Assembly (NCBI GenBank): GCA_003194525.1
Contig: NBIV01000109.1
Coordinates: forward strand, 62,001-126,000
DNA: 64,000 nucleotides
From: Gracilariopsis chorda
Taxonomy: Eukaryota; Rhodophyta; Florideophyceae; Gracilariales; Gracilariaceae
Direction: 5' to 3'
The notes under the pieces were generated by a model that ran no database searches, was not told the origin of the DNA, and worked only from the letters and a program-made list of their open reading frames with translations. Both the position numbers and the translations under genes were made by a program. Of the stretch, positions 1,114-64,000 are shown in pieces; position 1 is the first letter of the stretch; each line of letters starts with the position of its first letter.

Positions 1114-2015
1114 TGTAGTGCAATCCCCGCAAGCGGGACAACACACGAAGACGTTCGGAATTTTCCCCTCTGGAGGGTAACACAGCGAACGGAGCCTCTC
1201 CGGATGAGCACGACGAAGTCAGGTTGTAAAGCCGAGGCTCACCCTCACGCCAAGCGGGGAGAGTTGAAACTGTAGGATTAGGATCACCACGAATGGGAAA
1301 ACAGCCCTTCCAAGGGGTACGAGTCCACGTAAGTGGGGTAAGACGTCACGGGGTACCGGCATGAGAGACACGCGTCAGCGGTGACGAGCAACCACACAAA
1401 AGGGTAGGAACCACGAGAGTGGGGTAACGGAAATACGGGGGATGCCCGATTGGGGGCGAAGGGGGTGTGGGCCAGCGGGACCACGGAAAAAGGTACAAAG
1501 AAACTCTATACAGGGGCGAGATCACGGCGATGGTGAATTAAGTGACAAGTGCCCAAGGCGGTGATACTCCTAGTGACGCAGGGTGGATAGGTCTACCGTT
1601 AGTAACGCAGCTTTACTTCCGAGGAGCGTAGAAGACTCGCGAAAGCGGAAAAGACTTAGAGCCAAGAACCCTGGTTGGGGAGGTTTACTCAGTGTCAGGG
1701 CGAGGTCGCCAAGCCACTATATAGTGTAGTAATCTCCCTACTGTAGCGTAGAGAAATAATAAATAATAAATATAAGATAACTAAATGTCCACACCGTGGT
1801 GCCAACCTCCTCTTGACTATCCATATCACTCGTGGTCCACTCACGTCTTGGGCGGCACACGGCGCATGCACAGGTGTGCAACTGGCGCACAGTGCGGATC
1901 CGCTGAGGGCTGAGACACCCGCTAATAGCGGTAGTAATCATAAACATGCGAAAGCGGCAAAAACATCAAGTCCACAGGGCATCGCTGAGTCTTCCTCCTT
2001 GAGGATTGCACTTCA
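1114..2015 (-). repeat. Element A 3' LTR (family 1)
   Basis: It is 902 bp long and matches 10206-11107 end to end. It contains CACTATATAGTG at 1715-1726, a perfect 12-bp palindrome holding a TATA box that can be read on both strands, and AT-rich AATAATAAATAAT just beyond it. In the plus direction it lies directly upstream of the antisense gene, so it probably supplies that gene's promoter (inference). Confidence 0.95.
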
Positions 2016-2051: not shown

Positions 2052-2890
2052 CGGCGACGGAAGCACCGGGCAAGGTCCTTAAATGTAAGTCCGGTTCGCC
2101 GGTTCTCCATCCCACTCTGGGTAACGAGCACCTAGCTGCGAACAGCGAATCTGCGACCAACTATTCCGAGGTTCTTCCAACAACACGTACGCTTTCGCGG
2201 CCTTCTTCTCCGATTACTCGGCTTCCTTCATCTACGATGAACAACAACAACAATAATGGCAACAACAACGGCAACGCCGGCAGCAACAACGGCAACACCA
2301 GCAGCAACACACCGTTGCAGTACTTCTCCGGATTTAATTCCGTGCCTCTATCGCAGAGCGGTCTCTCGACTCCTCCGCAACAAACAGGCGCAATTGCGAG
2401 TGCGGCTCCCACGGGAGGGTATCTAATGGCAGCGTGGCCGTCGTACGACATGCTGTTCGGGCTGCAGCCTTCGCAACATGCGATAACTCTCCGGCTGGCG
2501 CCGTGGTTCCACCCGACTGCGGGGTTCAATGATGCGCTTCTGGCGATGTATACCGATTGAAACGGGATGCTCCCGGGTGACGTTCCGGCAATCGTAACCA
2601 CTTCGTGGGATTGGCGCAATCGCGTAGCGATACTCGTGCACACGTTAATCCGACGGGGTCGGGAATCAGCAGCTTCCGCGCACGCGGCGTTGGTCTTACT
2701 TGCTCATCAACGGCTTCGCCGGGCCCCCTTTGAGTATCCTATCCCCGATGGTATGGGCTCCGACATCGGATTGTATCGCACCCAAGGTGAAATGGGGTAC
2801 CTCGACCGCCTCGCGGGTTTGGAGGTCCTCGGCACGGCCGTTTGCGTCGACCACTTGATGGTGCGTATCGGGACCCTTGCTGTGGGTTAA
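2052..2890 (+). pseudogene. Antisense LTR-proximal gene of element A, truncated copy
   Basis: This is the element A copy of the antisense gene that is best preserved in element C. The position of the start codon in element B is ACG here (2052), so the first in-frame ATG is 2237, at the head of an Asn/Gly-rich stretch. One in-frame TGA (2558-2560) replaces a Gly codon of B. Recognisable residues run through the conserved LRLAPWFHP and TTSWDWR blocks to 2817, where an internal deletion joins the frame to reversed pol sequence; it then stops at 2890. About two thirds of the protein is missing. No known domain is seen. Confidence 0.75.
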
Positions 2891-10205: not shown

Positions 10206-11107
10206 TGTAGTGCAATACCCGCAAGCGGGACAACACACGAAGACGTTCGGAATCTTCCCCTCTGGAGGGTAGCACAGCGAACGGAGCCTCTCCGGATGAG
10301 CACGACGATGTCGGGTTGTAAAGCCGAGGCTCACCCTCACGCCAAGCGGGGAGAGTTAAAACGGTAGGATTAGGATCACCACGAATGGGAAAACAGCCCT
10401 TCCAAGGGGTACGAGTCCACGTAAGTGGGGGATGACGTCACGGGATACCGGCACGAGAGACACGCGTCAGCGGTGACGAGCAACCACACAAAGGGATAAG
10501 AACCACGAGAGTGGGGTAAGGGAAATACGGGGGATGCCCGATTGGGGGCGAAGGGGGTGTGGGCCAACGGGACCACGGAAAAAGGTACAAAGGAACCCTA
10601 AACAGGGGCGAGAACACGGCGGTAGTGAATTAAGTGACAAGTGCCCAAGGCGGTGATACTCCTAATGACGCAGGGTGGATAGGTCTACCGTTAGTAACGC
10701 AGCTTTACCTCCGAGGAGCGTAGAAGACTCGCGAAAGCGGAAAAGACTTAAAGACAAGAACCCTGGTTGGGGAGGTTTACTCAGTGTCAGGGCGAGGTCG
10801 CCGAGCCACTATATAGTGTAGTAATCTCCCTACTGTAGCGTAGGTAAATAATAAATAATAAATATAAGTTAACTAAATGTCCACACCGTGGTGCCAACCT
10901 CCTTTTGACTATCCGTATCACACGTGGTCCACTCACGCCTTGGGCGGCACACGGCGCATGCACAGGTGTGCACCTGGCGCACAGTGCGGATCCGCTGAGG
11001 GCTGAGACACCCGCTAATAGCGGTAGTAATCATAAACACGCGAAAGCGGCAAAAACATCAAGTCCACAGGGCATCGCTGAGTCTTCCTCCTTGAGGATTG
11101 CACTTCA
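10206..11107 (-). repeat. Element A 5' LTR (family 1)
   Basis: It is 902 bp, the partner of 1114-2015, with the palindromic TATA box at 10807-10818. Transcription of gag-pol would start a little downstream of that box on the minus strand. Confidence 0.95.
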
Positions 11108-11608: not shown

Positions 11609-12433
11609 TTCAGGTGCAATGCCCGGAAGTGGTAGTGCACCTAAAGACCTTCGGGATCTTTCCTCGTTAGAGATGAGCCCAGTTGGGTACAGCCCTCCCA
11701 GGAATGCCACGACTGTGTCGCGTTGTAAGGCCAAGGCCACCCGTCGCGACTTGCGCAGGGAGGTTGAGGCAAGAATCGGGTATCCGCAGGAGGGATGTAT
11801 GGGGTTGGTCGTCCTCTAGAGAGGTGAGGTTTCCACGTTAGTGGCACGCGCGAACACGAGCCGTGGGTAACGGGAGAGCCACCCTGTAAAGCGAAAAATA
11901 AGGGGGAGCAGAGTCACGAGTGTCGTGACGAAGACTAACCGCAGTGCCGGTAAATAAACCTTATACAAGGCGAACACCAAGAAAGTTGGAATAACAATCC
12001 GAATACTCGGGTTCTTTAGATAGGCAAGGGGGTTAGACTTCCCGTATGCCACGGTGCTTCCCTTCAAAGAGGGGTAGAGAACACGCGAAGGCAGTAAGGT
12101 CTAGAGCCAATTCCTCAGGTTGGGGTCCCTTGTTCGGGAAAGGTTTACTGGTGCGACGGCAAGTTGCAGTTTACTGGTGCGACGGCAAGTTGCTGGCGCA
12201 CTAAGTACTAAACATCCCAGAAATGGGTGAAAAAATTATAAATAAAATTAACTAAATTACTCCACTTTGGTGGTTCATGCCCTCTACTATGGCCAACCGC
12301 CAATTGACTCTTCTCTGCTTCACTTGTCCGATCCACTATTAGTGGTCGTAGTTCATGCAATGACTACATTACCCAAAACGTTCGGGAAATCAACCAAGTG
12401 CCTGGAATCCCTCCCTGACGGCATTGCACTTCA
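11609..12433 (-). repeat. Solo LTR, family 2
   Basis: About 825 bp align with the LTR of element C (56901-57726): both hold GACCTTCGGGATCTTTCCTC-like and GGTTTACTGGTGCGACGGCA blocks and end in CATTGCACTTCA or a close variant. No internal element sequence adjoins it. The 5-mers beside it, TGTCT (11604-11608) and TGTCC (12434-12438), look like a target duplication with one change, so this is probably a solo LTR left by LTR-LTR recombination. The word TTTACTGGTGCGACGGCAAG is tandemly duplicated near 12143-12193. Its first base pair is TT rather than TG. Confidence 0.75.
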
Positions 12434-12704
12434 TGTCCGAGAAAGTGCTGACAAATGGAGATATTTCCGGCCAATCCATACACGTTTGTGTTATCTCACG
12501 TCTTAAGAGGCAGTCTGAATGATCGTTATCTTCCCTTATACCTACTTCATTACTTCAAAGTTCCCCATTATTCGCTAGGAGCCCCATCACGTCTCACACA
12601 TTTACGATCCTCATTGTAGCATGTTATCGTTGGAATTGTTCTACTGATGTAGTAAAATGAACGTGAGTGGAAAAACACTGAAAAAACTTCTGTATCTTTC
12701 TTCT
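12434..12704. other. No feature seen
   Basis: The segment between the two family-2 LTR copies has no supported ORF, repeat or RNA signal. Confidence 0.4.
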
Positions 12705-27524: not shown

Positions 27525-29654
27525 CTAATTGTCGCGCATAATATGATGCTTGTCACGCAAGTGATCATAAAAACAATCACGCCCAGTTCCAGTGTGACAT
27601 ATATATATGTCCATATCATTAATTTTCCTGCATTCAGAACAAATAAACTTCGACTTATAGATTGTCTTGCAAATTTTGCATCTTCCTTGGTACACCAAAG
27701 AAGTAAAAGAACCATCAAGCTTCCTTCGTTTCCTATTTGTTTGCATTAAATGAATACCTGTTCCAGCAATTTTCGGATTCTCTTCAGAAACTTCTATGTT
27801 TTCAGATTTCCTCTACATGGGACCAACTGAATCCCATGTATTATCTATGAGTCCATCCGCCAGCATGCAATAGAAATCATGCGGAGAAAGAACCAATTTT
27901 TCTCCATAAGATGCTTTGTAAAGATTCCAAGCATCAACCACGCACATCGCTAGCAGAGATGTATTCACTCTAAAAGACCATTCTTTAACTTCAAATTTCT
28001 TCTCGAGGTTCAAATCATCCTGTCGAGATCGATTGTGTCGATCAATTTTCGAACAGCAAGAGTAATATTCCTCACAGACTTCTGGAATCGGAATTGAGAT
28101 AGAAATTTTTTTCGAAACTCCATTATTAGTTCTCCACCTCTCTCGTGCGATGGGAGTTCCAGGCTCCGTACTTCCACAGGTACTGATAAAATACCTCCTT
28201 TCACGGTCCACCCAGAGAACAGACATTAGCTTTTGATTTAGTTCAGGCAGTTCAGCAACCATTGCTACATGCTGTCCGCGTTCAGTCATGGTGAGCTCTG
28301 ATAAATGTTTCATTGGAAACCTTTTTGTGGCCGTTTTTACCACTCCAATGAACCTCATTCCTCTCCTAAGAAGCTGTTCCGCGGTTTCCAGAGATGCAAA
28401 GTATGAGTCTGCACATACAATGCGATCCGTAGCAAACCAGCTTTCCACCAATCGTAGCAAGACTGCCGTACCGTGTGGATTATCTGCCTCAAACGGTAGA
28501 TTAACGGTGTCAGCAGATCCCATTGTTATTTCTATTTTGAGAAGAATACCACTTTTCCCACAGCACACCGTTTTCAATTCACAACCATTCTCAGGTTTCC
28601 TGTCCAGTGCAGTGTAGTGTGGAATTCCAATTCCACTCCAATGGCCTCCAAGTCCATACCAGCGTGACATGCTTTCATCAACTCAAAGTGTGTGGGACGG
28701 AGTAACAAAAGCCTTACTGTGATCATTTATCGCTCTGACGAAATCCGTTAGCCGTGACCATCTGGCATCATTTTCCACTTCTTCCTCTCCATTTCCACTG
28801 AAAACGATGCATCTTCTTATAACTTCAAACCGATGGCGTGACATGATTTTACCCAGCTTGGGCGAATCAATATACTTAGATGAAGAGTTTTCAGACCACA
28901 GTGATCTCCTTCTCGAAAACTCGAATCGACTCATTAAGATCATTATGCCAAAGAACCTTAGAATTTCGCCTTCTGTTGTCCTGTTTACGTTTTCTGCTTC
29001 CAACCTGATATTTGTCTTTCGAACAATTGTTCCCAAGTGAGCAACAGGAAACATCCACATGAAGAAATCATATGGTGAAAGATCGGTAGGCACATGTACT
29101 GCTGAGATAAAGTCTCCTATCGGTCCCGTGACTTTCCACTGGTGCATTTGCACTGGACCATTAAGAGACAAGGAAACATTTGCTTTGATCCATTTCGTCG
29201 AATGAACTTCGACCACGTCCTCGTGACCGTTACGTTCTGTCACAGTATGATGGCTTCTCGCACTAATACTGTTACTGTTTTCGGCAATCGTGACAACCTG
29301 TTCTGACGGGTCGATGGTTACCTCGCCATTAGAAGTAATATTATTACTCTCCATATTGGTTCCAGCTGATCGTTCAGTATTTCCTTCAAGCGTGACATGA
29401 TCACCTGCCTTTAGGTTACAAATTTTCATGACGCACTCCTTGTCTCGGCCAGGCAGCTCAAAGTTTACGGTGACAAGAGTCACACGGCGTCCATTTTTGA
29501 TTTCCACTTCCACTTTTGTGACGGTTCCACTGATTAGTTTCGTTTTCCATTGTGTGCCAAAGAAGCGTTTACATTCATTGATTGACGTCACGAGTCGCGC
29601 GCGAGTGTTTACTCTGTTGCCCACCACTCTTCGTGGATCAGAGCTTGTTGACAT
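27525..29654 (-). pseudogene. piggyBac transposase (CTAG element)
   Basis: One frame of about 710 codons runs from the ATG at 29654 to 27525 with only two stops, TGA at 28680-28682 and TAG at 27813-27815. After a basic N-terminal region with possible OB/beta-rich parts, the DDE_Tnp_1_7 domain begins around YDFFMWMFPV; the first catalytic Asp is in VDESMSRWYG directly after the TGA, where many relatives have Cys. CADSYFASLETAEQLLRRG is the second Asp region, and VVDAWNLYKAS carries the third. The C-terminus (27746-27525) is a Cys/His-rich zinc-binding domain CKICKTIYKSKFICSEC, typical of the family. It is nearly intact, so loss of activity is recent. Confidence 0.85.
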
Positions 29655-30098
29655 CTTGAACTCAGATTAGGCGGATTTGGTCGAGTTTGAAGGTGTTTAC
29701 GAAGTGTATACGCACTTATAAGGCCCGAAACAGGGTTGCCAAGCAAGAAGAGAGTGTTGACAACAAGAAGACGGAAAGATTTTGAAATATTTTTATTGTT
29801 TACGAAAGTTACGAATGTTGTAATTTTGGCCTCATATGAGGCCAATGGTCCAATAGACACTAGTATCATAGGTCATAGAGCAGACGACAGTGTGTTTGTT
29901 GCGAACGGAGGAGAATGTACATTTAAAGGAAGGGGAGGGAACAATACTTTGATTGCTAAGCGCTGGCGCCATAAATTGACTGGAGGTACAGGTCAAGATG
30001 GTTTTGAACTGTATGCCTGCAGTCCTTCCGATCTCGATGTTGTATACGTCTCAGGAGCTGAAAAATGCTGTGTCTATCTGCAATGGAACGTTGGTTGA

Positions 30099-32412: not shown

Positions 32413-33387
32413 TTAAGCTGATAACCAGTTTGCAATGGCCATCCCGATTTCATCTGGAGAATCTTCCTGCAAGAAGTGGATTCCAGGAACGGACACTTCA
32501 GTTAATTCAGGAAAAGAACGAGCGACTCGAAGGGACTCGGAACCATCAGTGATCAAAAGCCCTGGTTCTCCTCGGATAAGCAGCTTCGGAACGCTAGACG
32601 TTTGCAGCCACTGAGAATACGTTTCAATGAAGGCAGTGACATCAGCTGGAACCCCATTTATGGGTATTTGTCTTGGAAATGTTAACGTCGGTCGGCGATC
32701 TTCCCCAGCGTTCAAAAACGGGCGCCGGTACTCATCCAATTCCTTCGCAGAAAGATTGCGTATAACACCATCGGGAAAAAGTTGTTCAATGAAAATGTTT
32801 TTATTGAGAATGAGATCCTCTCCAGCTGGCGATCGAATCAGATTAAAGAAGTTTGTGATCTCAGATGGGAAAGTATCCGATCGATACGTTGTGACAAGCG
32901 CCTCGAAGAACACAATCGCCTTCACGGCGTCCGAATTTCCGCGGTTGTAGAAGGCCCATAAAAACCCGAGCGCTGAACCCCAGTCGTGGATGACCAGAGT
33001 GACGTCTTCTTTGACGCCAAGTGCTTCCAGAAGCTGATAAAGGTAATTTGAATGTTCCAACACGGTGTACCGGTTAGGCCCGCTGAAGTCCAATTTTTCT
33101 GTGTCACCCATACCAATGAGATCCGGTGCAATTAGCCGACCACGCCCTTCAAGGTGAGGCATGATATTCCTCCATAGGTACGAGGAGGTTGGGTTTCCGT
33201 GTAGAAAGACGATCGGATCGCCTTCGCCAACTTCGACGTAAGCCATTCTCTTGCCGGCAATGGTCTTGAACTGCTTTGTGATAAAACGGGCAGGGGGGTC
33301 ACCCGTAGCACGAGCGGCGTTTGCTGAATGGGGAAATGAAAGAAGACATGCGATGAAGCAAACGGCAAATAGGTATCGGAGGGACAT
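32413..33387 (-). CDS. Secreted haloalkane dehalogenase
   Basis: The 324-residue protein starts at the ATG at 33387; an upstream in-frame extension to 33447 begins with a non-ATG codon. It opens with a signal peptide (MSLRYLFAVCFIACLLSFPHSANA), then an alpha/beta-hydrolase. Residues visible: HGNPTSSYLWRN with halide-binding Asn65, VIHDWGSALGF with nucleophile Asp135 and Trp136, acid Glu162 in FFEAL, and His304 in GIHFLQEDSPDEIG. That is the complete pentad of the HLD-II subfamily, which hydrolyses haloalkanes to alcohol and halide. The cap domain (PAGEDLIL ... RRPTLTFPRQIPI) is full length. The family is mainly bacterial, so transfer into this genome followed by gain of a signal peptide is likely. 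No intron is needed. A TATTTAAAT-like box lies about 70 bp upstream. Confidence 0.93.
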   Translation of the reverse strand: MSLRYLFAVCFIACLLSFPHSANAARATGDPPARFITKQFKTIAGKRMAYVEVGEGDPIVFLHGNPTSSYLWRNIMPHLEGRGRLIAPDLIGMGDTEKLDFSGPNRYTVLEHSNYLYQLLEALGVKEDVTLVIHDWGSALGFLWAFYNRGNSDAVKAIVFFEALVTTYRSDTFPSEITNFFNLIRSPAGEDLILNKNIFIEQLFPDGVIRNLSAKELDEYRRPFLNAGEDRRPTLTFPRQIPINGVPADVTAFIETYSQWLQTSSVPKLLIRGEPGLLITDGSESLRVARSFPELTEVSVPGIHFLQEDSPDEIGMAIANWLSA

Positions 33388-33910
33388 TGTCCTGAAGAGA
33401 TAGAAAGGAATGGGGCAGTTCGTCTGGATTGAGAGCGCCACTGACAAAAGCAGTATTTAAATGCTAAGGCTCTGGTGGACGTACGTTTGATTGTTCTGCG
33501 CAGAGGACAGTGGTTTCTACGAAGTAGCCAATCACATTGATTCGATTGTTGTTGATCACACGATTGTAGATATTTCGCCAAGTCTCGATGCAGATGAGGT
33601 TAACAATTCAAGCGGTCATGTGGTTTCTTCGTTACCGTGGTAGCCAATTACGTTCGCCCAATTGTTGTTTGGTCAAGATCTTCAGTTTGTCGCCTCGGTG
33701 AGATGTGCATGTGTTCCAATGGCACATTATTAAAATTACAAATGTTTTGACATACTACATGCGCGTGTTTCACAAATTCAAATGCAAAACTCATTCCGCA
33801 GGTCAGCTACATTTGGTACAATGGTATATTCGTTGATCGCATTTCTCTCCTTGCCAAACGTGTGATCAGCGGTCTTTCCCAAGTCTCCTGAATCTCTAAC
33901 ACCCGCTTCA
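33388..33910. other. Upstream region of the dehalogenase gene
   Basis: Apart from an AT-rich TATA-like box at about 33457-33465, I see no gene. The phrases TAGCCAATCACATTGATTCGATTGTTGTT and TAGCCAATTACGTTCGCCCAATTGTTGTT-like pieces near 33527 and 33641 repeat each other; both hold CCAAT, so they may be duplicated promoter boxes. Confidence 0.35.
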
Positions 33911-38718: not shown

Positions 38719-40085
38719 TCAAGCTACCACAGCGGCCCCATCAAAATGACTACGGTAATTCCAAACGATTCCTTGAAGCTTCGGAAAGAGCCGTCGCTCT
38801 TCCCAAAGCCCATTCATGTTAACGGCTAACCCGGTACGTATCATTGCTTTTCTTGCATACGTCAGACCATCAACATCCCGCTGACGATTAACATCTCTCA
38901 CCGCGAGCACCGCCAAATTTAGGAACAACTTCTTTCCTGGATTACATATTCTTCCCGAACTTGACCATGAGCCCTTTTGTATCATGTCCATCTTATGCTT
39001 CTCCCGACAAGCGTTCCACGCACATTTAATCTTTTGAATGATAAAAGAATCGGCTGGCTGCACCAAATCCGTTGCATTTGGAGGAAATCATTTCAGTTCA
39101 GTGTTGATATTGCGACAACCGTTGTCGAAAGCAGACGTTGGAATATGCCTGCTACAGTTGTCTACAAAAAGAATCCGCTTACGGCCATTTGAAAGGCGGG
39201 TTATGACTTTCTTCTCTTCCAACCATTGTGGCAACATCGTAAAATTTTTCCCACCTTTTCGGACACTACGATACAAAACTCCTTTTTGGTCGTCTGGTAC
39301 GCCTCTTATAGGATACGATCGAGATTTATTCTGGAATGACATAAACACAGGTTCATTTCTTGCGTTAGGGCCACCATTTATGCGAACAACCATCGTCATA
39401 CCCTCCCCACTAGACTCCACGTCATTATACTTCACCTAGTTTTCGCCGCAAAATCCTAATGTTGTTCCATTATCCCTGTTGATTACAAAATGTGTGTCGT
39501 CCGCGTTCTCAACATCCTCTTCCTTCAATGCTTCGCATCGGAATGCGCGCGCCACTTTTCCCAGGTGGTACACAACTGCCTTAGGTATCAACTCAGTCTT
39601 TTCGGAGGAGAGCATGCGCTTGCCAGTGTGCGCTCTACTTACAATTCTGTGGCGCTCCATGAATGATTGGATCCACTCGCGGCTTATGGACTCGATAACT
39701 CATTTGTTACTACGGTCATCCAACATTTCTTTATGGTACAAAATGGAACTTGATTGGTGGATAAGGTTTATATTCATAGTCTAAAGAGTACGCCAGTTGA
39801 ACTTTACTCCAAGTTTTCGAAGCCTGTCAAACTCAGTCAGCATGCCCATATGAAGAGCGGTAACCCACCCCCATAGTTTCCTTCCCCTGCCCGTACGAGC
39901 CTTCAGGTTGACGCGCTTCATGCCCATATGCGTACCCCGTGTAATCGAAATACATGCTTCTCTGCTCTCATTTACTCCATCATGGTTTATGTATTCATAA
40001 AGATTGAGCCAACGGCGGCTCGCTTTTTGGAGGTTAGCGTTGGCTGAGCTGCGAAAAAAAAAATGGGAATTGATGCACGGCTTAT
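38719..40085 (-). pseudogene. pogo-like DDE transposase, C-terminal part
   Basis: The text reads in order: residual DNA-binding region after the retroelement (40085-39781, with FFFRSSANANLQKASRRWLN and an HTH-like HDGVNESREACI), a CENP-B-like HTH piece ERHRIVSRAHTGK (39660), first catalytic Asp in ENADDTHFVI, then VKYNDVESSGEGMTMVVRI, second Asp in ILFVDNCSRH (about 39135) and third in MVQPADSFIIQKIKCAW (39066). The frame changes at least three times; one change lies at a run of ten A at 40054-40063, where nine would keep the frame. The N-terminal 28 codons are beyond element B at 51705-51789. Confidence 0.75.
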
Positions 40086-40985
40086 TGTAGTGCAATACCC
40101 GCAAGCGGGACAACACACGAAGACGTTCGGATCTTCCCCTCTGGAGGGTAACACAGCGAACGGAGCCTCTCCTGATGAGCACGACGAAGTCGGGTTGTAA
40201 AGCCGAGGCTCACCCTCACGCCAAGCGGAGAGAGTTGAAACGGTAGGATTAGGACCACCACGAATGGGAAAACAGCCCTTCCAAGGAGTACGAGTCCACG
40301 TAAGTGGGGGAAGTCGTCACGGGATACCGGCACGAGAGACACGCGTCAGCGGTGACGAGCAACCACACAAAGGGGTAGGAACCACGAGAGTGGGGTAAGG
40401 GAAATACGGGGGATGCCCGATTGGGGGCGAAGGGGGTGTGGGCCAGCGGGACCACGGAGAAAGGTACAAAGGAACCCTATACAGGGGCGAGAACACGGCG
40501 GTGGTGAATTAAGTGACAAGTGCCCAAGGCGGTGATACTCCTAGTGACGCAGGGTGGATAGGTCTACCGTTAGTAACGCGGCTTTACCTCCGAGGAGTGT
40601 AGAAGACTCGCGAAAGCGGAAAAGACTTAGAGCCAAGAACCCTGGTTGGGGAAGTTTACTCAGTGTCATGGCGAGGTCGCCGAGCCACTATATAGTGTAG
40701 TAATCTCCCTACTGTAGCGTAGATAATAATAAATAATAAATATAAGTTAACTAAATGTCCACACCGTGGTGCCAACCTCCTCTTGACTATCCGTGTCACA
40801 CGTGGTCCACTCACGCCTTGGGCGGCACATGGCGCATGCACAACTGTGCACCTGGTGCATAGTGCGGTTCCGCTGAGGGCTGAGACACGCGTTCATAGCG
40901 GTAGTAATCATAAACACGCGAAAGCGGCAAAAACACCAAGTCCACAGGGCATCGCTGAGTCTGCCTCCTTGAGGATTGCACTTCA
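40086..40985 (-). repeat. Element B 3' LTR
   Basis: It starts TGTAGTGCAAT and ends ATTGCACTTCA; the palindromic TATA box is at 40686-40697. It is followed by the polypurine tract 40986-40998. Confidence 0.95.
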
Positions 40986-41020: not shown

Positions 41021-42822
41021 ATGGCGACAGAAGCACCGGGCAAGGTCCTTAAATGTAAGTCCGGCTCGCCGGTTCTCCATCCCACTCTGGGTAACGAACA
41101 CCTAGCTGCGAACAGCGAATCTGCGACCAACTCTTCCGAGGTTCTTCCAACAACACATACGCTTTCGCGGCCTTCATCTCCGATTACTGGGCTTCCTTCA
41201 TCTACGATGAACAGCAACAACAACACCGGCAGCAACACACCGTTACAGTACTTCTCCGATTTCATTCCGTTCCTCTACCGCAGAGCGGTCTCTCGACTCC
41301 GTCGCAACAAACAGGCGCAAATGCGAGTGCGGCTCCCACGAAAGGGTATCTAATGGCAGCGTGGCCGTTGTACGACATGCTGGTCGGGCTGCAGCCTTCG
41401 CAACATGCAATGACTCTCCGGCTGGCGCCGTGGTTCCACCCGACTGCGGTGTTCAATGATGCGCTTCTGGCGATGTATACCGATGGAAACAGAATGCTCC
41501 CGGGTGACATTCCGGCAATCGTGACCACTTAGTGGGATTGGCGCAATCGCGTAGCGATACCCGTGCACACGGTAATCCGACGGGGTCGGGAATCAGCAGC
41601 TTCCGCGCACGCGGCGTTGGTCTTACTCGCTCATCAACGGCTTCGCCGGGGTCCCTTCGAGTATCCCATCCCCGATAGTATGGGCTCCGACATCGGACTA
41701 TATCGCACCCAAGGTGAAATGGGGTACCTCGACCGCCTCGCGGGTTTAGAACCACTCTTGTGGAGAAGCAATCCCGCGGCGCGCTAAGACGCGGTGTGCT
41801 GGACACGACCCATCATTCGGGCTGAATTCCGCTATATGCGTCGCTTGGCGAGGGCCAACTTCTTGTCGATGATACGCTTTGAGCGGCAAGCACGGTCCCG
41901 ATTCGGGTATTTGATTCCGTATCAGAACGTAGAAGTCGAACGCATCCGCGTGGTCATCCGACGGGGTCGGTACGTTCCGATTCCACCGTGGTGGTCGCAT
42001 CTCGAAGCGTGCCGAGGTTGCTACATCGGGTTGCCTCCCGTGATCACGTATTACGGCTCATACCTCATCGAGGATCCTCAGTCCGGGCTCTGGTCAGTGG
42101 TGGTCACCGAATAGGCGGTCCGCACAGCGGCTTTCATCCTCTGGGAGGTTTATGACCAGTACAGACTGTGGTTCATCCCGTTTCGGGTCCGTGCCGCCAT
42201 CCGAGCGCTGGACTTACGAATCCCACTAGGTGGTGAGGCAAACGCTGACGAAGTAGCGGGGCTCCTCGATTTCATCGACCACGTTGACTGGGCTTCGGTT
42301 CCTCTAGAGCAGAGTGGGCGTACTGCCGGTAGCAGGATACAGGACCTGTCGCCAGGGCGTCGAACTCCGCTCGCGGGTGACTTCATCTACTTCAACCCTT
42401 GGGAGGGGCATGAGATGTCCGCGGAGGAAGCGAACGAGCTCCGGTTTGCACCGAGATATATCCCTGAGGGGCATCCGACCGGTTTTGTTGACGCCGATGA
42501 GTACTACAACGTCTACGACGGTGAGGATCCGATGTTCGACAACGAGCCCGACGAAGGTGCCGGTCACGTCGAGGCAGAGGGAGAACCATATGGTATGGAT
42601 GCTCCTGGAGTCGCCCCTGCGAGTCAGCCGTCCAATCCGTCGGTCGGTCTTCCCACTGGTGGGTCCTCTACGCCAGGTGAGGCGAACGTGGCCCCTGCGG
42701 GGCAGGCTGCCGTGATCTCTCAGTTCCTCCGCCAAGTGGGGCTGGGAGGTAACGAGGCCAGTGGCGATGTCACCGCGATGCGGGATGCTCTGATAGCCCG
42801 ACTCCAGGGAAATAACCACTAA
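41021..42822 (+). pseudogene. Antisense LTR-proximal gene of element B
   Basis: The start ATG at 41021 is 35 bp from the LTR edge and gives MATEAPGKVLKCKSGSP. The frame shifts once near 41270 and carries stops at about 41528 (TAG for the Ser of TTSWDWR), 41785 (TAA for Gln) and 42112 (TAG for Trp), each a single-base change judged against element C. The protein can be followed over about 600 codons: an Asn/Thr/Gly-rich head, a conserved middle (LRLAPWFHP, PIIRAEFRY, RSRFGYLIPYQNVEVERI, PQSGLWSVVVTE, VRAAIRALDLRIPLGG), an acidic stretch DPMFDNEPDE and a conserved C-terminal helix (ISQFLRQVGLGGNEASGDVTAM). No known domain, signal peptide or membrane helix is seen. Confidence 0.8.
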
Positions 42823-50800: not shown

Positions 50801-50803
50801 CTT

Positions 50804-51704
50804 TGTAGTGCAATACCCGCAAGCGGGACAACACACGAAGACGTTCGGATCTTCCCCTCTGGAGGGTAACACAGCGAACGGAGCCTCTCCGGATGAGCAC
50901 GACGAAGTCGGGTTGTAAAGCCGAGGCTCACCCTCACGCCAAGCGCGGAGAGTTGAAACGGTAGGATTAGGACCACCACGAATGGGAAAACAGCCCTTCC
51001 AAGGATTACGAGTCCCCGTAAGTGGGGGAAGAGGTCACGGGATACCGGCACGAGAGACACGCGTCAGCGGTGACGAGCAACCACACAAAGGGGTAGAAAC
51101 CACGAGAGTGGGGTAAGGGAAATACGGGGGATGCCCGATTGGGGGCGACAGGGGTGTGGACCAACGGGACCACGGAAAAAGGTACAAAGGAACCCTATAC
51201 AGGGGCGAGAACACGGCGGTGGTTAATTAAGTGACAAGTTCCCAAGGCGGTGATACTCCTAGTGACGCAGGGTGGATAGGTCTACCGTTATTAACGCGGC
51301 TTTATCTCCGAGGAGTGTAGAAGACTCGCGAAAGTGGAAAAGAATTAGAGCCAAGAACCCTGGTTGGGGAAGTTTACTCAGTGTCAGGGCGAGGTCGCCG
51401 AGCCACTATATAGTGTAGTAATCTCCCTACTGTAGCGTAGATAAATAATAAATAATAAATATAAGTTAACTAAATGTCCACACCGTGGTGCCAACCTCCT
51501 CTTGACTATCCGTGTCACACGTGGTCCACTCACGCCTTGGGCGGCACACGGCGCATGCACAACTCTGCACCTGGTGCACAGTGCGGATCCGCTGAGGGCT
51601 GAGACACCCGTTAATAGCGGTAGTAATCATAAACACGCGAAAGCGGCAAAAACACCAAGTCCACAGGGCATCGCTGAGTCTGCCTCCTTGAGGATTGCAC
51701 TTCA
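50804..51704 (-). repeat. Element B 5' LTR
   Basis: It is 901 bp, the partner of 40086-40985, with the palindromic TATA box at 51404-51415. Confidence 0.95.
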
Positions 51705-56584: not shown

Positions 56585-56900
56585 GAGAATGGGCGAATGC
56601 AAATGCCACAAACAATGGGAAAGTGCGGTACCGACTTCTGACTGTTAGAATTACTTATTATTTACCTTTCTTTGAATATAGTTGGCTCTAGCATCAGTTT
56701 CAACGTGCAAAAACTAGCTAGGGTTATTTTAATTGATCTGCTCAAGAAATCGGTTACCCATTTGCCATGCCAAACTGGCCTCGAAGCCGAGTTGACATCT
56801 TCGCGACACTCTGTGATTATGGCATCAGAACATGTTCATGTCAAAGAAGTCTTGGTTGGCCACGTGATTGGCTGTAAATTACACGTTGCCTACTACTCAC

Positions 56901-57726
56901 TGTGGTGCAACGCCCCAAAGGGGAGAAACAACGAAAGACGTTCGGGATCTTTCCTCCGTGAAGGTGAACCCAGTTGGGCAGAGCCCCTCTAGGGGTGGCA
57001 CGGCGGAGCCAGTTTGTAAGACCGAGGCCACCCTTCGCGACTAGTGCAAGAGGGTTTAGGACAAGAATCGGTATCCGCGAGAGCGGGAATGCGTCCTCGC
57101 TAGAGGTAGGTGTCCACGTAAGTGGGGGTGTGTGAGCAGATGCGCACACGAGGGCCGTGGATAGCGGGATATGTTACCCTGGAAAGGGGGAAAAAGAAAG
57201 GGCGAAGAGGAGGAAAGGAGGACGAGGTGAGTCGCAAGAGCAACGGGGGCAAGCGGCGATGCCAGTAACAGTATCCCTATACAGGGCGAAACACCAATGC
57301 AACTGGAATAATATGACTCCCAGTGATGGGTCCCTTTAGATGTACAAGGCAGTTAGATGTCCCGTGGTTCATGGCGTTTCCTTCCAAGGAGGAGTGGAGC
57401 ACGCGCGCGAGCGGTAACAACTAGAGCCAATTCCCAGGTTGGGGTCCCTTGTTGGGGAAGGTTTACTGGTGCGACGGCAGTGCACCGTCGCACTAAGTAC
57501 TAGCTTCCCAGAAATGGGGGTGAAAATAATAAATAAAATCAACTAAAATACTCCACATTTCGTGCCAACATCCACTATTGTGGCCAACTGCCAATGGACC
57601 CAAAACCGTTTCCCATTTGTCCATATCCACCATTGTGGGGCGTAGTTCATATTCACACTACACAACCGATAATATCGGGAAAGCAATCAAGTACCAAGAA
57701 TCCCTCCCTGAGGGCGTTGCACTACA
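56901..57726 (-). repeat. Element C 3' LTR (family 2)
   Basis: It starts TGTGGTGCAACGCCC and ends GGGCGTTGCACTACA (826 bp). It has a hairpin with 9-bp arms GTGCGACGG and complement at 57469-57493. The solo LTR at 11609 and the fragment at 12705 belong to the same family. The core ACGTTCGGGATCTTTCCTC is shared in altered form with family 1 LTRs. Confidence 0.9.
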
Positions 57727-57738
57727 TATCCCCCCCTA
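57727..57738 (-). other. Polypurine tract of element C
   Basis: The minus strand reads TAGGGGGGGATA directly before the LTR. Confidence 0.8.
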
Positions 57739-57781
57739 AGACTGGAAAACGACCGCAGATGCGGAGGGTTCCCAGACGAAA

Positions 57782-59560
57782 ATGGGTGATAAAAGCGCGT
57801 GCGCCGTCTCCGGTTCTCCGGTAAATCCCTCTGCACCAGAGTCATCGAGTGCACAAACAACAACAACAGCCACCCTCAAAAATGGAGAAATGAACAACGA
57901 CAACAATATCAACCATAACAGCCAACCTTCGAGGCCTCTCGGGCGATACACCACCGGTTTCCGGTCAGTTCCCCTGCCTCAGGGCGATCTACATCCGGTA
58001 AAACCGGGGAATATGGCTGCTACAGCCGACCATCTCTTCGCACTACCACCTTCGGTGGGGTCCTCCAGAACCGCTCCGGCGTTCAACTGGCCAACCTACA
58101 ACACCCTGGTGGGGCTCAACCCGAAGAATCGGAATCACGCGTCGCGCCTGCGCCTGGCCCCGTGGTTTCACCCAGTCACTGTCCTCAATGAGGGATTGGT
58201 CACCGCTTATGCGGATGGCTCAGACACCATTCCGGGGGATCTGCCCAGAGCAGTCACCACATCGTGGGATTGGCGTCCCCGGATTGCGATTCCGCGTCAC
58301 CACCTCCGAAGGAATTCGGACGAGACCGTCGCTGTGGCCCACACCGCGTTGAAGCGCATGGCATACCAACGGCAGAGCTGGGCTCCATTCGATATACCGG
58401 TCCCACCGGAGTTTGGCTTCGACGTTAGCCATTTCTGCACTCGCGGGGAGATTGGGTACGGCGACAACCTGTTCCGCCTCGCTTGGAGGAATTTGCCCGC
58501 AGCGCGCCAAGAAGCCCTTTGTTGGGAGCGACCGATTATCCGGGCGGAGTTCCGCTATCTTTCCTGGCATTACGGGTCAACCTTCGTCCAGAAATTCATC
58601 CGCTACGAGCAGCGTCGGCGATCCCGATTCGGGTATTTCATCCCGTATCAGAACGTGGAGATAGAGCGAATTGCGCCGCCTCACCGATTAGGTCAGTATG
58701 TAGCACTCACCGAGTGGTGGTGCTTCCATGAAGCGTGCCGGGTGTGCTACATAGAACTCCCGCCGTTACTTACGTACCTCGGGTCGCTGCTTATGCAGGA
58801 TCCCCGGTCAGGGTTGTGGTCCGTAGTGGTTACGGAGTGGTCAGCCCACGCTGCGGCTTATATCCTCAACGAGGCGTACGACCAGTTTCGTCTCTGGTTC
58901 CTCCCACCGCGTGTGCGGGCAGCGATCTGCAATTTGGATCTTCGCATCCCCCTTGGGGGCCAGGCCAACAATGAAGAGGTCCTCCAATTACTTGGGTACA
59001 TAGACAGCGTTAGCTGGAGTGAGGTCCCGCTGGAGCAAAGCGGTCGTCTGGATGGCGACAGCGGTAACACCGGTGGTCCGGGACTGGGTAGAAACACCGC
59101 GCTTGCGGGGGATTTTATCTACTTCGACCCCTGGGAGTTCCGGGAAAATTCCTCCGAGGAGGCGCGCGAGCTTTGCGATGCGCCCCGGCATGTGCCAGAA
59201 GACCACCCGGTGGGGTAAGTCGATTCTGACGACTACTACCGCGTATACGGCGGGGATGACCCAATGTTCGATAACGAACCGGAAGAAACCGGGGAGATGG
59301 ACGTAGAGGAAACCGGCGCTAGCGCGGAAGCTTTCCCAGAGGGGATATCTACGGCCGAGCCGGCTGCTGACCCTTCGGCGGCAAGTGCCGGACCTTCTAT
59401 CCCCAGCGGGGTGACGGCGAGTGAAAACGAGATCATCGCACGTTTTCTCCGGGGTGCTGGTCTGAGCGCTGCCGAGGTATCGGGGGATGTCACCACTATG
59501 GCGGACGCGTTGGCCTACCGCCTCGCTGGTGGTTACGCCCCGGGCGACGGCGAAGAGTGA
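57782..59560 (+). CDS. Antisense LTR-proximal gene of element C, best copy
   Basis: From the ATG at 57782 one frame runs 592 codons to the stop at 59560 with a single in-frame TAA at 59216-59218, where B has a sense codon. The product has a Ser/Thr/Asn-rich head with NNDNNINHN, a large conserved body (LRLAPWFHP, TTSWDWRPRIAIP, PIIRAEFRY, RSRFGYFIPYQNVEIERI, PRSGLWSVVVTE, VRAAICNLDLRIPLGG, DFIYFDPWEF), an acidic part around DDPMFDNEPEE and a C-terminal helix (ARFLRGAGLSAAEVSGDVTTM). Trp, Arg and Tyr are abundant in the body, suggesting a folded nucleic-acid or structural protein, but I recognise no family. It is opposite in sense to gag-pol and does not overlap pol. Known plant Retand/Ogre-type elements also have extra ORFs, some antisense, near the 3' LTR; homology to these is not evident. 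Confidence 0.8.
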
Positions 59561-59646
59561 GCCCCTTTTGTCCAGTTTCCTGGTGTTCCTTCTCTGGCAT
59601 AGCCAGCTAGTGTAGTATAGTGTGTGGGGAGCTAGCTGCTCCCTTG

Positions 59647-59652
59647 AATAAA
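59647..59652 (+). terminator. Poly(A) signal of the antisense gene, element C
   Basis: AATAAA lies about 90 bp beyond the antisense stop codon; the matching signal in element B is at 42931-42936. Confidence 0.55.
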
Positions 59653-59805
59653 CTTTCCCGTTTAGAACGGTGATTTTCGTTTGAGTTCCGCGTCTTCGAC
59701 GGACCTTGCCTTGTTATCCTTTCCTATCGCCCTCCGCTCGCACGGCAACGTTACCCGACTTGGGCATGAACCAGCGACCCGGCTGAGCCGGTGAGTCCGA
59801 CCGGG

Positions 59806-62091
59806 TCAGTAGGTCTGAGAGTCCCCGGCTGGGGTGTGGTAGTACCGTAGGGTACTCCCGGAGGATTCCCGTGTTGCAGAGTCCGTACAAACGGGATGTC
59901 CTGAATCCAGGATTACCTCTGAGGAGGGAGGGGGGTCGAGCGCGACACGATCGCGGGAAATCCGCTCGTGTGCTCCGCCTATCTCTACAACGACAGTGTC
60001 GTCATTAACAGATATGACCTTGAAGGGTCCGTCCGCCACAGGCGAGAGTTTATGATGCTTCTCCCGTTCCGGGTTGTAGTACTCCTTCCTGATGAAGACG
60101 TAGTTATTTGCCCAAATCGGGGGGGTTTTTCCTCGCAAGCGAGCATCAAAATCCCGCTTGTAACTGGCTTGGGCCCGTGCCATAGACTTCCGCGCAGTGG
60201 GGACCAGCTTAGAAAGCCATTGCTTCCATTGCTTCCGGTAGATACCCACTGATGGGAAATTTTCCAAGGTAGCTTGGGGTTCCAGCGCCACAGGCGGGGG
60301 TGTTCTAGATAGAACCAACTCGAATGGTGATACTCCGGTAGTCCGCTGTACCTGCATATTGTACGCGAAGGTTAACGCGGCAGCGTAGAGATCCCAATTC
60401 TTTGGGTGGTCAGCGACGTAGGAACGTAGCGCCGCGAGTAACGTCCGGGTAAACCGTTCAACTTGCCCATTACACTGGGGGTGGTAGGTAGTCGTGAACA
60501 AGTTCTTGACATCCAGGATGCGACAAACCTCCTGAAAGAACTTGCTCACGAACTGCTTCCCGTTGTCAGAGAGCACCTCTACAGGGGGACCGTAGACAAA
60601 AATCCAGTGCGTCACCAGAGCCTGGGCCACCGTGAGAGCGGTTATCCTCCGAAGAGGGACAGTCCGTACCAGCTTAGAAAAGCGGTCGGTAATGACAAGT
60701 AGAAACTAGTTTCCAAGTTTTGTGGTGAGTAGTGGTCCGAGGATATCAATTGCGATAAACTCGAGTGGCGCCCTTGCGGGAAATAGTTTCATCTTCTTCG
60801 CATTTTTGCGGAGCTCGACGCGATTCTTCGCGCATTTGCTACAGAACCGCACAGTTGCGTAGCAATCCACTGCCATGGCGGGCCAATAGAAATCCCTTCG
60901 CAGGGTTAGGTAGAGTTTTCTCCCACCTGGGTGACCTTCCATGCGGGCGTAGTGTGATAGATGTAACACCCGCGATTGCAGGGAATGTGGTACCACAATC
61001 TGTGGGCGGGCTTCTACCTTCCTTACAAGGTAGCATTTGTCGTACACGCCGAAAGGGAGATCTTCACCAACGTTAAGACGGGCACGAATCCTCGTGCAGA
61101 AGGGGTTACCGAACTGTTCTCGGATCATCTCCTTCGGTGAAACCAGTACAAAATTTCCCAGTAACGGGTTCTCAGACTCATCTCGCGATGCGAGTAGGTC
61201 GTCAAAGTCAGCATCCTCGTCCCAGTTTTCTGGCCCAGCCTCGACGGCACATTCCGGATCATCCGGGTCTATGTCCATGAAACATGGGACTTCATCATCC
61301 TCCGTTGGGAGTGCTTCCCCACTTGTGGGTAAACGCGACAGGGCGTCAGCTTGGGTGTTCTGCGCGCCCTTCTTATAAATGACTTGGAATTCATATTCCA
61401 CGAGGTGGAGTCTCCAGTGCATGAGGCGTCCCGACGGGTCGGAGATATTTATTAACCACCTCAGTGTGGAATGATCCGTGTATACGGTGAAGTGAACTCC
61501 CGTAAGGTAGGGGCGCAGAGTGGTCATCGCCCATACGACGGCGAGGCACTCTTTCTCCGATATGGAGTAGTTCCGCTCATGAACATTGAGCGAGCGCGAC
61601 CAATAACCGATTGGGTGTCGTGCCCCTCGGGGGTGGTTTTAAAAAGAGCACACCCGACTTGGTAGTCGCTTGAGTCCGTATCTACGGAGTATGGCAAACC
61701 AAGGTTTGGGAGATGTAGGATTGGTGCTGATGTGACAGCCTCCTTCAAGGAGTTAAAAGCTTCCGATTGCTCGGGCGTAAATGTTCCCAGTTTTGAGGGG
61801 TTCCCCTTTCGCAACAACGCGTTCAGGGGCGCCGCGGTATCCGAAAAGTTCGGGATAAACCGTCGATAGACGTTGACCAGCCCCAAAAAAGAGCGCAGTT
61901 CCGTTTGAGTACGGGGCTCTTTCGTCTCAACGAGGGATTTGACTCGAGCTTTCTCGATCGCTAACCGTCCAGGACGGATAATGTGACCCAGATACTTCAC
62001 AGTATCTGTGAAAAACTCGCATTTCCTCAACTTGAGGGTAATTCCCGCATCGCGGAGTACGGTTAGCACGTGTCGGACGTGAGGACCGTTC
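59806..62091 (-). pseudogene. Element C pol fragment: RT end, RNase H, integrase
   Basis: From 62091 downwards the RT thumb/connection (LKLRKCEFFTDTVKYLGHII, FLGLVNVYRRFIPN), RNase H (VDTDSSDYQVGCALF, YTDHSTLRWL), integrase zinc finger and core (AIDILG, SDNGKQF, NGQVERF) are readable. A frame change near 61620 and a TAG at 60706-60708 (for Lys) break it. It ends at 59806 after a short C-terminal domain with GDY/NNYVF-type integrase tail motifs and no chromodomain. Confidence 0.9.
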
Positions 62092-62094
62092 TAA

Positions 62095-64000
62095 AATGGT
62101 GTTCTGGGACGTACCAGCGTACTGACTTGCAGTTTTTTGAGCCAATGTTTTCACCGATGTGAAAATGCACATCAGCTCAAAACTTTCAGGCCTCTGCATG
62201 TCTGATCTTCAGAGTATGAATACTACTCAGACTCCGAAGAGTATTCATCCTCTTCTCCATGGGTATGTCAGCAGATACTGTACAGTTTATACTGTCGTCG
62301 TCGCCACATCACTTTGAATTTTATAAGACGCTCTACACTTTCGTAAAGGCCATTTGACCGAGCGAGATCCCATGGCCTAAGAACACATTCCAGTTGCGTT
62401 CATAATGTTATCCGTCATCAAGAAGGTGCTTCCGCTGATCTTGTTTGATCCTCTTCAAATATTTGACACCAAAGCGCACGTGGTTTATCGCACTCGCCAT
62501 GACCAAAACGAACACCAAGCGTCGTCGATCACTGCAAAGAGCCGCCCTCTTGAATCTTAATGAGGCAATCTTGCTTGGATGTTTTGCTCCAGCAAAAGCA
62601 ATCCAAAAACCGAAGTTGGGAAGAAAGACTCCATCATTGCTTCCCAGATTGCGTGAAACAAATCCTCGAAACGACGAAAAATTAGGATTTGGCTACACCG
62701 CACGATATTTTTAAAGACTGTTCCGAATGACACGAGCAAGCTTTGTCAGTCTTTTAGAAATTGTACAGCTCGACCTCACAAAGGACTTTGAATCTGCACG
62801 AAGACTGGGTAATGTAGTCATTGCCCCAGATGTACTTCTTGGAATAACTCTTCGTGTGCTATCAGGAGGAAAATACCAAGACATTGCCCACTCACACAGA
62901 ATTGGATTCTCAGCTGTGTATCATATTTTTCATGAGACGTACGGATTTATTGGAAAAAGGTTGAAGATTCACGAACTGCCTGAATCGGAAGAAGAAATAA
63001 GAAGGCTTGCGGATCGATTTAAGACATTTCGATGCATACCAAGTCCTTTGACCGGTTGCATAGGTGGGCTCGATGGCATTCTAATTCCCATCAAGAAGCC
63101 CGAATAGTGTCACAATCCGGCGTCGTTCTATTGCAGAAAAGGTTATTATACACTGCTTGTACAGGACTTGGTATCTTTCGACTATAAGTTCGTCTCTGTA
63201 TTCATCAAGTGTGTTGGATCCACCCATGACTCTCTCTGTCACAACGTATCCGAGCTTGGGCGGTTTCTGAAACAGAAAGGACTTTCTACAGGTCATTGGA
63301 TTGTAGGCGATGAGGCATTCACCTGTTCAGAGGTGTTGATCACACCGGTTCCAAGCTCCAAAGATGGAGAGGACGAGGTTCATTTCAACTATTTTCTGTC
63401 GTCATTGAGAATTATCGTGGAACAGGCATTTGGAGTTTTGGTATTGAAGTGAAGAATACTGAAAAGTGATTTGCTATTCGACCTAGAGAAAAGCACTCGG
63501 ATTGTCGTTTTATGCATGAAGCTCCATAACTTCTTGATTTCAAAGGATACAGCGTATAGGACGTTTGAATACTCAGATGCTGATCTACGTTTAGTGAAGC
63601 AACAGTTTGATGAATGGTACGCGTTCTGTGCCGGGAACAACGGAAACAATCACAGAGCGCATGCTGTACCGCCGGAGTCAAGGAAGAGAGCCGAAATGAT
63701 TCAGATCGTTAAGCAGCTTGGACTAAAACGTCCTCCGGTATATAGAGCTACTGAAACACAACCTTGTGAGTATCTTCTTTGTAACTCTAACTAACCTTTC
63801 GGAAGCAGTAGAAACTATCTTTCTTCTGGCCCTCGGTTTCTAAGCAATATCGTGCTCAGGTTTTTATGAAATATTTCAGAGGTGCAGCTCACGATACAGA
63901 CAAGCTAGCAATTCCTATCCGAAGATGCCGCCGTATCAGATTTCCGTACCACAATTGTATCCCGCCCGTACATGTATCTCGCCACCTATCCACACAAGCC
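62095..64000 (+). mobile_element. PIF/Harbinger-like transposon, left part
   Basis: The sequence departs from element C directly after TAA (62092-62094); PIF/Harbinger elements duplicate a 3-bp TWA target. A Harbinger-type transposase is encoded on the plus strand. The right end and the second TAA would lie beyond the window, so the inverted repeat cannot be checked. Confidence 0.65.
62499..63794 (+). pseudogene. PIF/Harbinger-type DDE transposase
   Basis: A single frame of 431 codons from the ATG at 62499 to the TAA at 63792-63794 contains three in-frame stops: TAA 62712-62714, TAG 63105-63107 and TGA 63450-63452, each one base from a plausible sense codon. An HTH-like region (GGKYQDIAHSHRIGFSAVYHIFHET) precedes the DDE_Tnp_4 core: first Asp in GCIGGLDGILIPIKKP, second in VGDEAFTCSEVLITP, Glu in SLRIIVEQAFGVL. 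Catalytic residues are all present. The few changes suggest recent death. Confidence 0.85.

What the first reader, a model, noticed from the sequence alone, without database searches (positions are those of the whole stretch)
57782..59560. An antisense protein gene carried by three related LTR retrotransposons
Seen: elements A, B and C each have, next to the 3' LTR and opposite to gag-pol, a long frame for the same protein (about 590 residues in C). B and C belong to different LTR families, yet blocks such as RSRFGYxIPYQNVExERI are kept. In PIIRAEFRY (58532-58558 against 41809-41835) the DNA differences in the first six codons are all at third positions and all synonymous. Known: extra, sometimes antisense, ORFs near the 3' LTR exist in some plant Ty3/gypsy elements. 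Inference: this is a selected gene of an ambisense element, of no family I recognise; it might serve packaging, regulation of sense RNA, or host interaction.
Basis: partly seen in the sequence, partly recalled or inferred. Interest (0 to 1): 0.88.

Follow-up and report, generated by a model that had tools for sequence, protein, structure and literature searches.

The report
Antisense gene in red-algal retrotransposons
Several related jumping genes in the genome of a red seaweed carry an extra protein gene on the opposite strand, kept by selection and matching no protein family that was searched; it resembles extra genes known from plant and fungal jumping genes but looks like a separate protein in another host group.

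Summary
The window lies in a 91.3-Mb genome, almost certainly of the red alga Gracilariopsis chorda. The antisense frame is real: window 57782-59560 (+), 592 codons, between the end of pol and the 3' LTR of a Ty3/gypsy element. The three window copies are broken, but 33 of 57 distinct fetched loci hold an unbroken frame of 600 aa or more. Four diverged families (B, C, D, E) share the layout pol-chromodomain -> <- aORF - LTR. The frame is under purifying selection: dN/dS 0.31-0.36 between C lineages, 0.16-0.36 between families; the other five frames hold stops in all 13 pairs tested. Homologues came only from Gracilariales or unnamed assemblies; no Pfam, NCBIfam or PDB-sequence family. The start codon lies 35-58 nt from the LTR, so the promoter is probably in U3 (inferred). 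The protein has no membrane segment, an arginine-rich, lysine-poor core and an acidic tail: most likely a nucleic-acid-binding regulator of the element (inferred). It works like the antisense ORFs of Grande, RIRE2, Retand and Boty, but without a detectable TRP28 domain: a new variant of a known kind.

The parts
57782..59560 (+). antisense accessory ORF (aORF) of element C, 592 codons plus TGA, one in-frame stop at 59216-59218
   Evidence: purifying selection among its relatives
56901..57726 (-). 3' LTR of element C (gag-pol sense is -); the U3 side abuts the aORF
   Evidence: 92.5% match to the other LTR at C109 about 132080-132903, outside the window; ends read
57727..57742 (-). polypurine-tract-like stretch just inside the 3' LTR, overlapping the inferred 5' leader of the aORF
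   Evidence: sequence; similar stretch in families B, D, E; function inferred
57524..57549 (.). A/T-rich block in U3, candidate shared core of sense and antisense promoters
   Evidence: A/T runs ending 239-275 nt upstream of the ATG in 8 of 8 loci of B, C, D, E examined; promoter role inferred
57469..57493 (-). hairpin near the inferred 5' end of the sense RNA (10-bp stem)
59809..60702 (-). integrase part of pol of element C
   Evidence: PF00665 E 2.8e-10
60709..61635 (-). RNase H / zinc-binding integrase part of pol of element C
   Evidence: PF17917 E 4.9e-27, PF17921 E 6.4e-13
41021..42807 (+). aORF of element B, broken by a frameshift and in-frame stops
   Evidence: tblastn 85% and 95% identity to an unbroken B-type copy
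40085..40985 (-). 3' LTR of element B
   Evidence: 97.0% match to 50803-51704
50803..51704 (-). 5' LTR of element B
2054..2866 (+). remnant of the aORF in element A (about the first 274 residues)
   Evidence: deletion junction near 2806-2820
1114..2015 (-). 3' LTR of element A
   Evidence: 96.0% match to 10206-11107
10206..11107 (-). 5' LTR of element A

Best explanation
This is an accessory gene of a group of chromodomain-bearing Ty3/gypsy retrotransposons in red algae of the order Gracilariales, encoded antisense to gag-pol between the end of pol and the 3' LTR. SHOWN by computation: the frame; its place in four element families; many unbroken copies; purifying selection on its own codons; a homologue in a second genus; no membrane segment; an arginine-rich, lysine-poor core. 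INFERRED: (1) its mRNA starts in the U3 part of the 3' LTR, which would make U3 a two-way promoter: from the 5' LTR it drives gag-pol, from the 3' LTR the antisense gene; (2) the ~600-residue protein (S/P/T/N-rich head, basic core with a motif like IRxERRxRxRFGYxxPYQN, acidic tail, conserved C-terminal segment) binds the element's nucleic acid and regulates its expression or replication, as has been proposed for plant antisense ORF proteins.
For: Layout: in C, B and E loci the chromodomain end of pol faces the aORF stop at 190-196, 211-217 and 453 nt, in D at about 1.5 kb; the domain itself was named by Pfam only in C-type L002, the others by tblastn to it. 51 of 70 B-type integrase matches have an opposite-strand aORF 1198-2150 bases downstream, commonest 1951, and 0 a same-strand one within 6 kb. 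Selection: dN/dS 0.312, 0.315, 0.360 for three C-C pairs (95% bootstraps of pN/pS within 0.21-0.57); 0.159-0.355 for seven between-family pairs, none of 1000 bootstraps of pN/pS per pair above 0.70; the other five frames hold 7-41 stop-containing codon pairs in each of the 13 pairs. Copies: of 90 scored C-type matches 72 have no stop inside the matched stretch by my count of the listing; among fetched loci an unbroken frame of at least 600 aa in 21 of 26 distinct C, 8 of 20 B, 3 of 6 D and 1 of 5 others. Other genus: P0003 of Gracilaria domingensis, profile E 5.4e-141. Start: ATG 35 (B), 47 (D, E), 55-58 nt (C) from the LTR end in 8 of 8 loci. Protein: largest 19-residue hydropathy mean 1.03-1.52, core pI 7.8-9.3, C-terminal part pI 4.1-4.5 in four representatives; core of 265-266 residues with 32-36 R and 0 K in the C, B and D copies, 33 R and 2 K in E, against 71 R and 47 K in a pol frame.
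Against: No transcript or protein was seen. The three window copies are broken. 19 of 70 B-type integrase matches have no listed aORF match within 4 kb, several inside long open pol frames, so the gene may be dispensable in cis; 17 of 68 B-type aORF matches have no partner integrase. Some of either may be contig ends. Two recent pairs show no constraint (L013-L012 0.94, L032-L034 1.08). Synonymous sites between families are near saturation (pS 0.55-0.73), so those ratios are rough; pol is more constrained (0.08-0.14 in five between-family comparisons, 0.27 in a sixth). Own-frame openness is by choice of unbroken copies and is not evidence by itself.
Confidence: 0.55

Rival explanations
1. Structural role: the antisense protein is a second particle or packaging protein that joins Gag assemblies, made from its own mRNA so that its dose is independent of Gag-Pol.
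For: Many unbroken copies; a large core with many invariant W, Y and P residues; an arginine-rich core could hold RNA.
Against: The elements already have a separate gag-like frame (named by eye and position, no Pfam gag match). No Pfam or PDB-sequence relative of the aORF. Not found at 19 of 70 B-type loci.
Confidence: 0.15
2. Counter-defence: the protein protects the element from host silencing or degradation; its lysine-poor core would be one way to escape ubiquitin-linked turnover.
For: 0 lysines against 32-36 arginines in the core of the B, C and D copies counted; it evolves faster than pol.
Against: Lysine depletion may be a compositional accident; by eye P0001 and P0003 hold a few lysines in the aligned core. 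No Pfam or NCBIfam match.
Confidence: 0.15
3. The functional product is the antisense RNA (dsRNA-based self-limitation), and the frame is only open by chance.
For: Antisense LTR transcripts without coding function are known in other elements (PMC7264820, passages).
Against: Codon-level purifying selection in this frame, with the other frames closed by stops; B and C proteins still 53% identical while synonymous sites are near saturation.
Confidence: 0.03
4. An envelope-like protein.
For: The stretch between pol and 3' LTR is where env lies (recalled).
Against: Antisense orientation; no 19-residue hydropathy mean above 1.52 in four family representatives.
Confidence: 0.02

Closest known systems
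Antisense additional ORFs between pol and 3' LTR (aORF-3R) of plant Ty3/gypsy elements: maize Grande gene23, rice RIRE2, Silene Retand, bean PvRetro13 (PMC7264820, passages; PMC11963269, passages and Discussion)
   Same: Place, orientation, conservation in many copies of a family, function not established; the Grande protein is reported as nuclear and its region as transcribed antisense.
   Different: Retand elements are non-chromovirus and 97% of clusters encode a TRP28 (PF04195) domain; here pol ends in a chromodomain and PF04195 gives no match in the genome search or in 12 family members at E up to 10. For Grande a promoter upstream of gene23 is reported; here the ATG almost touches the LTR, so the promoter is inferred to lie in U3.
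brtn of Boty-like elements in the fungus Botrytis cinerea (Zhao et al. 2011, seen only as cited in PMC7264820)
   Same: Antisense extra gene between pol and 3' LTR, outside plants.
   Different: Another host kingdom. No sequence of brtn was compared; none of the five proteins returned by the homologue searches is named as fungal.
HTLV-1 HBZ (recalled; a passage of PMC7264820 mentions the HTLV antisense promoter in the 3' LTR)
   Same: Antisense gene read from the 3' LTR inward; accessory regulator.
   Different: No sequence comparison was made; HBZ is a bZIP-type protein (recalled), which this is not known to be.

Membership tests
Ty3/gypsy chromovirus | RT and RNase H followed by integrase, with a chromodomain at the pol C-terminus | tested here: met
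   RVT_1 (A, B), RNase H and integrase domains (A, B, C); PF00385 E 5e-11 in C-type L002; homologous pol ends in B and E and D by tblastn. No RT tree was made.
[quoted passage not shown]
   51 of 70 B-type integrase matches; same layout in examined C, D, E loci
antisense additional ORF class (aORF-3R) | antisense transcription | not testable with these tools
   no RNA data held
plant Retand aORF protein | TRP28 domain (PF04195) | tested here: not met
   no match in the six-frame genome search at E up to 10; none in 12 members of A1; no profile-profile comparison made
env-like accessory gene | transmembrane segment | tested here: not met
   largest 19-residue hydropathy mean 1.03-1.52 in four representatives
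captured host gene | homologue outside the elements | tested here: inconclusive
   three protein searches returned five proteins in all; genome searches score only best candidates

The most novel reading that the evidence does not exclude
The elements run a two-promoter, Tat- or HBZ-like circuit. U3 fires both ways; from the 3' LTR it makes an arginine-rich, nearly lysine-free protein that binds the hairpin at the 5' end of the sense RNA (a TAR-like element present in C, D and E with paired changes) and switches the element between expression and packaging. This would be a retrovirus-style trans-regulator that arose independently in red algae.
Probability: 0.12. Interest if true: 0.88.

Novelty: new variant of a known kind. 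Interest (0 to 1): 0.6.

Why it matters
In the review read here in passages (PMC7264820) antisense accessory genes of LTR retrotransposons are discussed for plants, with Boty as the fungal example, and their function is called unknown. A selected case in red-algal chromoviruses, with no detectable TRP28 domain, suggests that such genes arise repeatedly and are useful to the element. With dozens of unbroken copies and several diverged families in one small genome, the role of the protein and of a two-way LTR promoter becomes testable. The searches that showed no description in red algae were made, by titles and abstracts in the listings; they cover open-licence papers only.

Tried and rejected
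Oomycete origin: my first guess from the look of the neighbouring genes; literature search was aimed at it; dropped when P0002 of Gracilariopsis chorda matched the genome at 100% over residues 1-491. TRP28: no match at profile level; no profile-profile comparison was made because no TRP28 alignment was at hand. Viral origin: the IMG/VR scan gave 22 pattern matches, none confirmed by tblastn. PHROGs and NCBIfam, four representatives: one chance-level PHROG, E 0.21, no NCBIfam. Rfam: nothing in 56800-64000. The 241-aa sense frame 58988-59713 opposite to the aORF: no Pfam match; the minus frames hold stops in each pair, so I do not take it for a gene. Shared deletion subfamily for element A: 1 of 40 matches spans the junction, A itself. 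Chromodomain hits as a control for elements without an aORF: 3 of the 150 listed hits were fetched; one is by eye a host helicase gene, the others show little, so the control failed; no aORF profile match in the three. I did not establish whether other gypsy lineages of this genome lack the gene. Structure prediction and fold search: not available.

Full report
Where it is. The window is G000:C109:62001-126000 of a 91.3-Mb, 1081-contig genome. The annotated G. chorda protein BWQ96_03215 (P0002) matches this genome at 100% over residues 1-491, so the organism is almost certainly the red alga Gracilariopsis chorda (Rhodophyta, Gracilariales).

What is in the window. Element A has LTRs 1114-2015 and 10206-11107 (96.0% alike), element B 40085-40985 and 50803-51704 (97.0%). 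Element C has its 3' LTR at 56901-57726 and the other about 6.9 kb beyond the window, 92.5% alike. Gag-pol reads on the minus strand: RT, RNase H and integrase domains in A and B, RNase H and integrase in the C pieces scanned. On the plus strand, starting next to the 3' LTR and reading toward pol, is the antisense frame: C 57782-59560 with one in-frame stop; B 41021-42807 with a frameshift and stops; A about the first 274 residues.

Copies and families. A search with the C protein (471 residues) scored 90 of 1718 candidates; 72 have no stop inside the match by my count of the listing. A search with the B fragment gave 151 matches, of which I took the 68 at 79% identity or more as B-type. P0002 brought in two more families, D (93-100% to P0002) and E (61-65%), and one copy at 71%. 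Such counts are lower bounds. Of the 58 loci fetched (57 distinct places), 33 distinct ones hold an unbroken frame of 600 aa or more: C 21 of 26, B 8 of 20, D 3 of 6, the E and 71% loci 1 of 5; they were fetched as best matches, so this is no random sample. Representatives of B and C are 53% identical.

Layout. The pol frame ends with a chromodomain-type segment that faces the aORF stop at 190-196 nt in two C loci, 211-217 in two B loci and 453 in an E locus; in one D locus the same order holds with a spacer of about 1.5 kb. Pfam names the chromodomain in C-type L002; B, D and E ends were matched to it by tblastn. Of 70 B-type integrase matches, 51 have an opposite-strand aORF downstream within 4 kb (1198-2150 bases, commonest 1951), none a same-strand one within 6 kb; 19 have none listed, and 17 of the 68 aORF matches have no partner. 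Element A is one of the 19; its deletion junction is spanned by 1 of 40 matches, itself. C84 keeps a first part of the aORF. The other 17 were not examined; at least one lies close to a contig end (C932).

Selection. NG86 on codon alignments of unbroken copies (L001 up to its stop): C-C 0.312, 0.315, 0.360; B-B 0.447; B-C 0.159 and 0.195; C-D 0.323; B-D 0.278; D-E 0.307; C-E 0.355; B-E 0.319. The 95% bootstraps of pN/pS for the three C-C pairs lie within 0.21-0.57; no between-family bootstrap exceeded 0.70; the B-B pair is wider, 0.26-0.81. Other pairs: L002-L001 0.47; L013-L012 0.94 and L032-L034 1.08, both very young. In the 13 pairs each of the other five frames holds 7-41 stop-containing codon pairs. 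Four of these frames give ratios of 0.57-2.10. The fifth (minus, offset 1) gives 0.37-0.55 in 11 of 13 pairs and 0.97 in two, but with 16-34 stops; I read it as a shadow of the aORF's free third positions. Pol pieces compared the same way are more constrained: 0.08-0.14 in five between-family comparisons, 0.27 in a sixth, longer and less alike one; A-B 0.52 with a wide interval. Synonymous sites between families are near saturation, so those ratios are approximate.

Relatives. Three searches of 5.8 billion proteins returned five proteins in all: P0002 and P0005 (G. chorda), P0003 (Gracilaria domingensis FGB62_50g12, E 5.4e-141) and P0001 and P0004 from a source without organism names. Each search scored about 8000 candidates. 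No Pfam match at E up to 0.1 for the window frame and only chance-level ones for 12 members at E up to 10; no NCBIfam match and one chance-level PHROG for four representatives; no PDB sequence; no confirmed IMG/VR locus.

The protein. Head of about 110 residues rich in S, P, T or N; mostly basic core; acidic tail; a conserved C-terminal segment. No 19-residue hydropathy mean above 1.52. The PWFHP-to-PLGG core of 265-266 residues has 32-36 R and 0 K in the B, C and D copies counted, 33 R and 2 K in E; a pol frame has 47 K to 71 R, a gag frame 23 to 64. It holds the well-kept block around IRxERRxRxRFGYxxPYQN. I read this as a nucleic-acid-binding protein; that step is inference.

Expression. The ATG is 35 nt (B), 47 nt (D, E; LTR end judged by its TG..CA-type terminus, not by an LTR pair) or 55-58 nt (C) from the LTR end in the 8 loci; one D copy, L034, has lost this ATG. 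The promoter is therefore probably in U3. In the same 8 loci an A/T-rich run ends 239-275 nt upstream of the ATG; B carries TATAAG and E TATATAAC on the aORF strand. On the other strand the block is followed by TACTTAGTG or a variant and a hairpin. These promoter readings are inference from sequence; no RNA was seen.

The hairpin. In 14 chosen variants of C, D and E (B does not align and was left out) 93.6% of cells pair. Two neighbouring pairs have changes on both sides, in the five D rows, probably one or two events; the three E rows break one of these pairs. The covariation score exceeds all 500 shuffles and the slid versions, but 382 of 500 shuffles reach the number of pairs with double changes and all 500 the number of pair types, and related rows inflate the score. 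B folds into a different, weaker structure. It is a lead for a target of the protein, nothing more.

Comparison with the known. [quoted passage not shown] PMC11963269, passages and Discussion). In Retand elements 97% of clusters encode TRP28, and a regulatory role is proposed. The present gene works like these in layout, but it fails the TRP28 test, sits in chromodomain elements, and lives in a red alga. Searches listed no paper on such a gene in red algae. Hence: new variant of a known kind.

Stop and LTR coordinates, pol-aORF spacers of D and E, and the counts of unbroken frames were corrected; results against the hairpin and the unpaired aORF matches were added.

Noticed in passing
57469-57493 (-) and LTRs of families C, D, E: Strong hairpin near the inferred 5' end of the sense RNA, with paired changes between families; a weaker, different form in B.
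   Followed up: partly
aORF core, e.g. L002, L022, L032: Arginine-rich core of about 266 residues without lysine in the B, C and D copies counted.
   Followed up: partly
G000 C3, integrase matches at 98989, 107802 and 116613: Three B-type integrase copies at 8.8-kb steps on one strand, suggesting a tandem array of elements.
   Followed up: no
G000 C701 (7761- and 12204+) and C705 (8852- and 13944+): Pairs of aORF copies in inverted orientation on one contig: nested insertions or assembly effects.
   Followed up: no
27816-29666 (-): Split transposase with DDE_Tnp_1_7 domain in two adjacent frames (PF13843, E 1e-22 and 2.2e-21); piggyBac-type from recall.
   Followed up: no
32416-33456 (-): Alpha/beta hydrolase (PF00561, E 2.3e-22), with a signal-peptide-like start by eye.
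   Followed up: no
11959-12438 and 57275-57731: 72.6% similar stretches: probably a remnant LTR related to that of element C.
   Followed up: no
P0002 (BWQ96_03215): The deposited model lacks about 21 residues that related loci hold in one open frame, probably a wrong intron.
   Followed up: no
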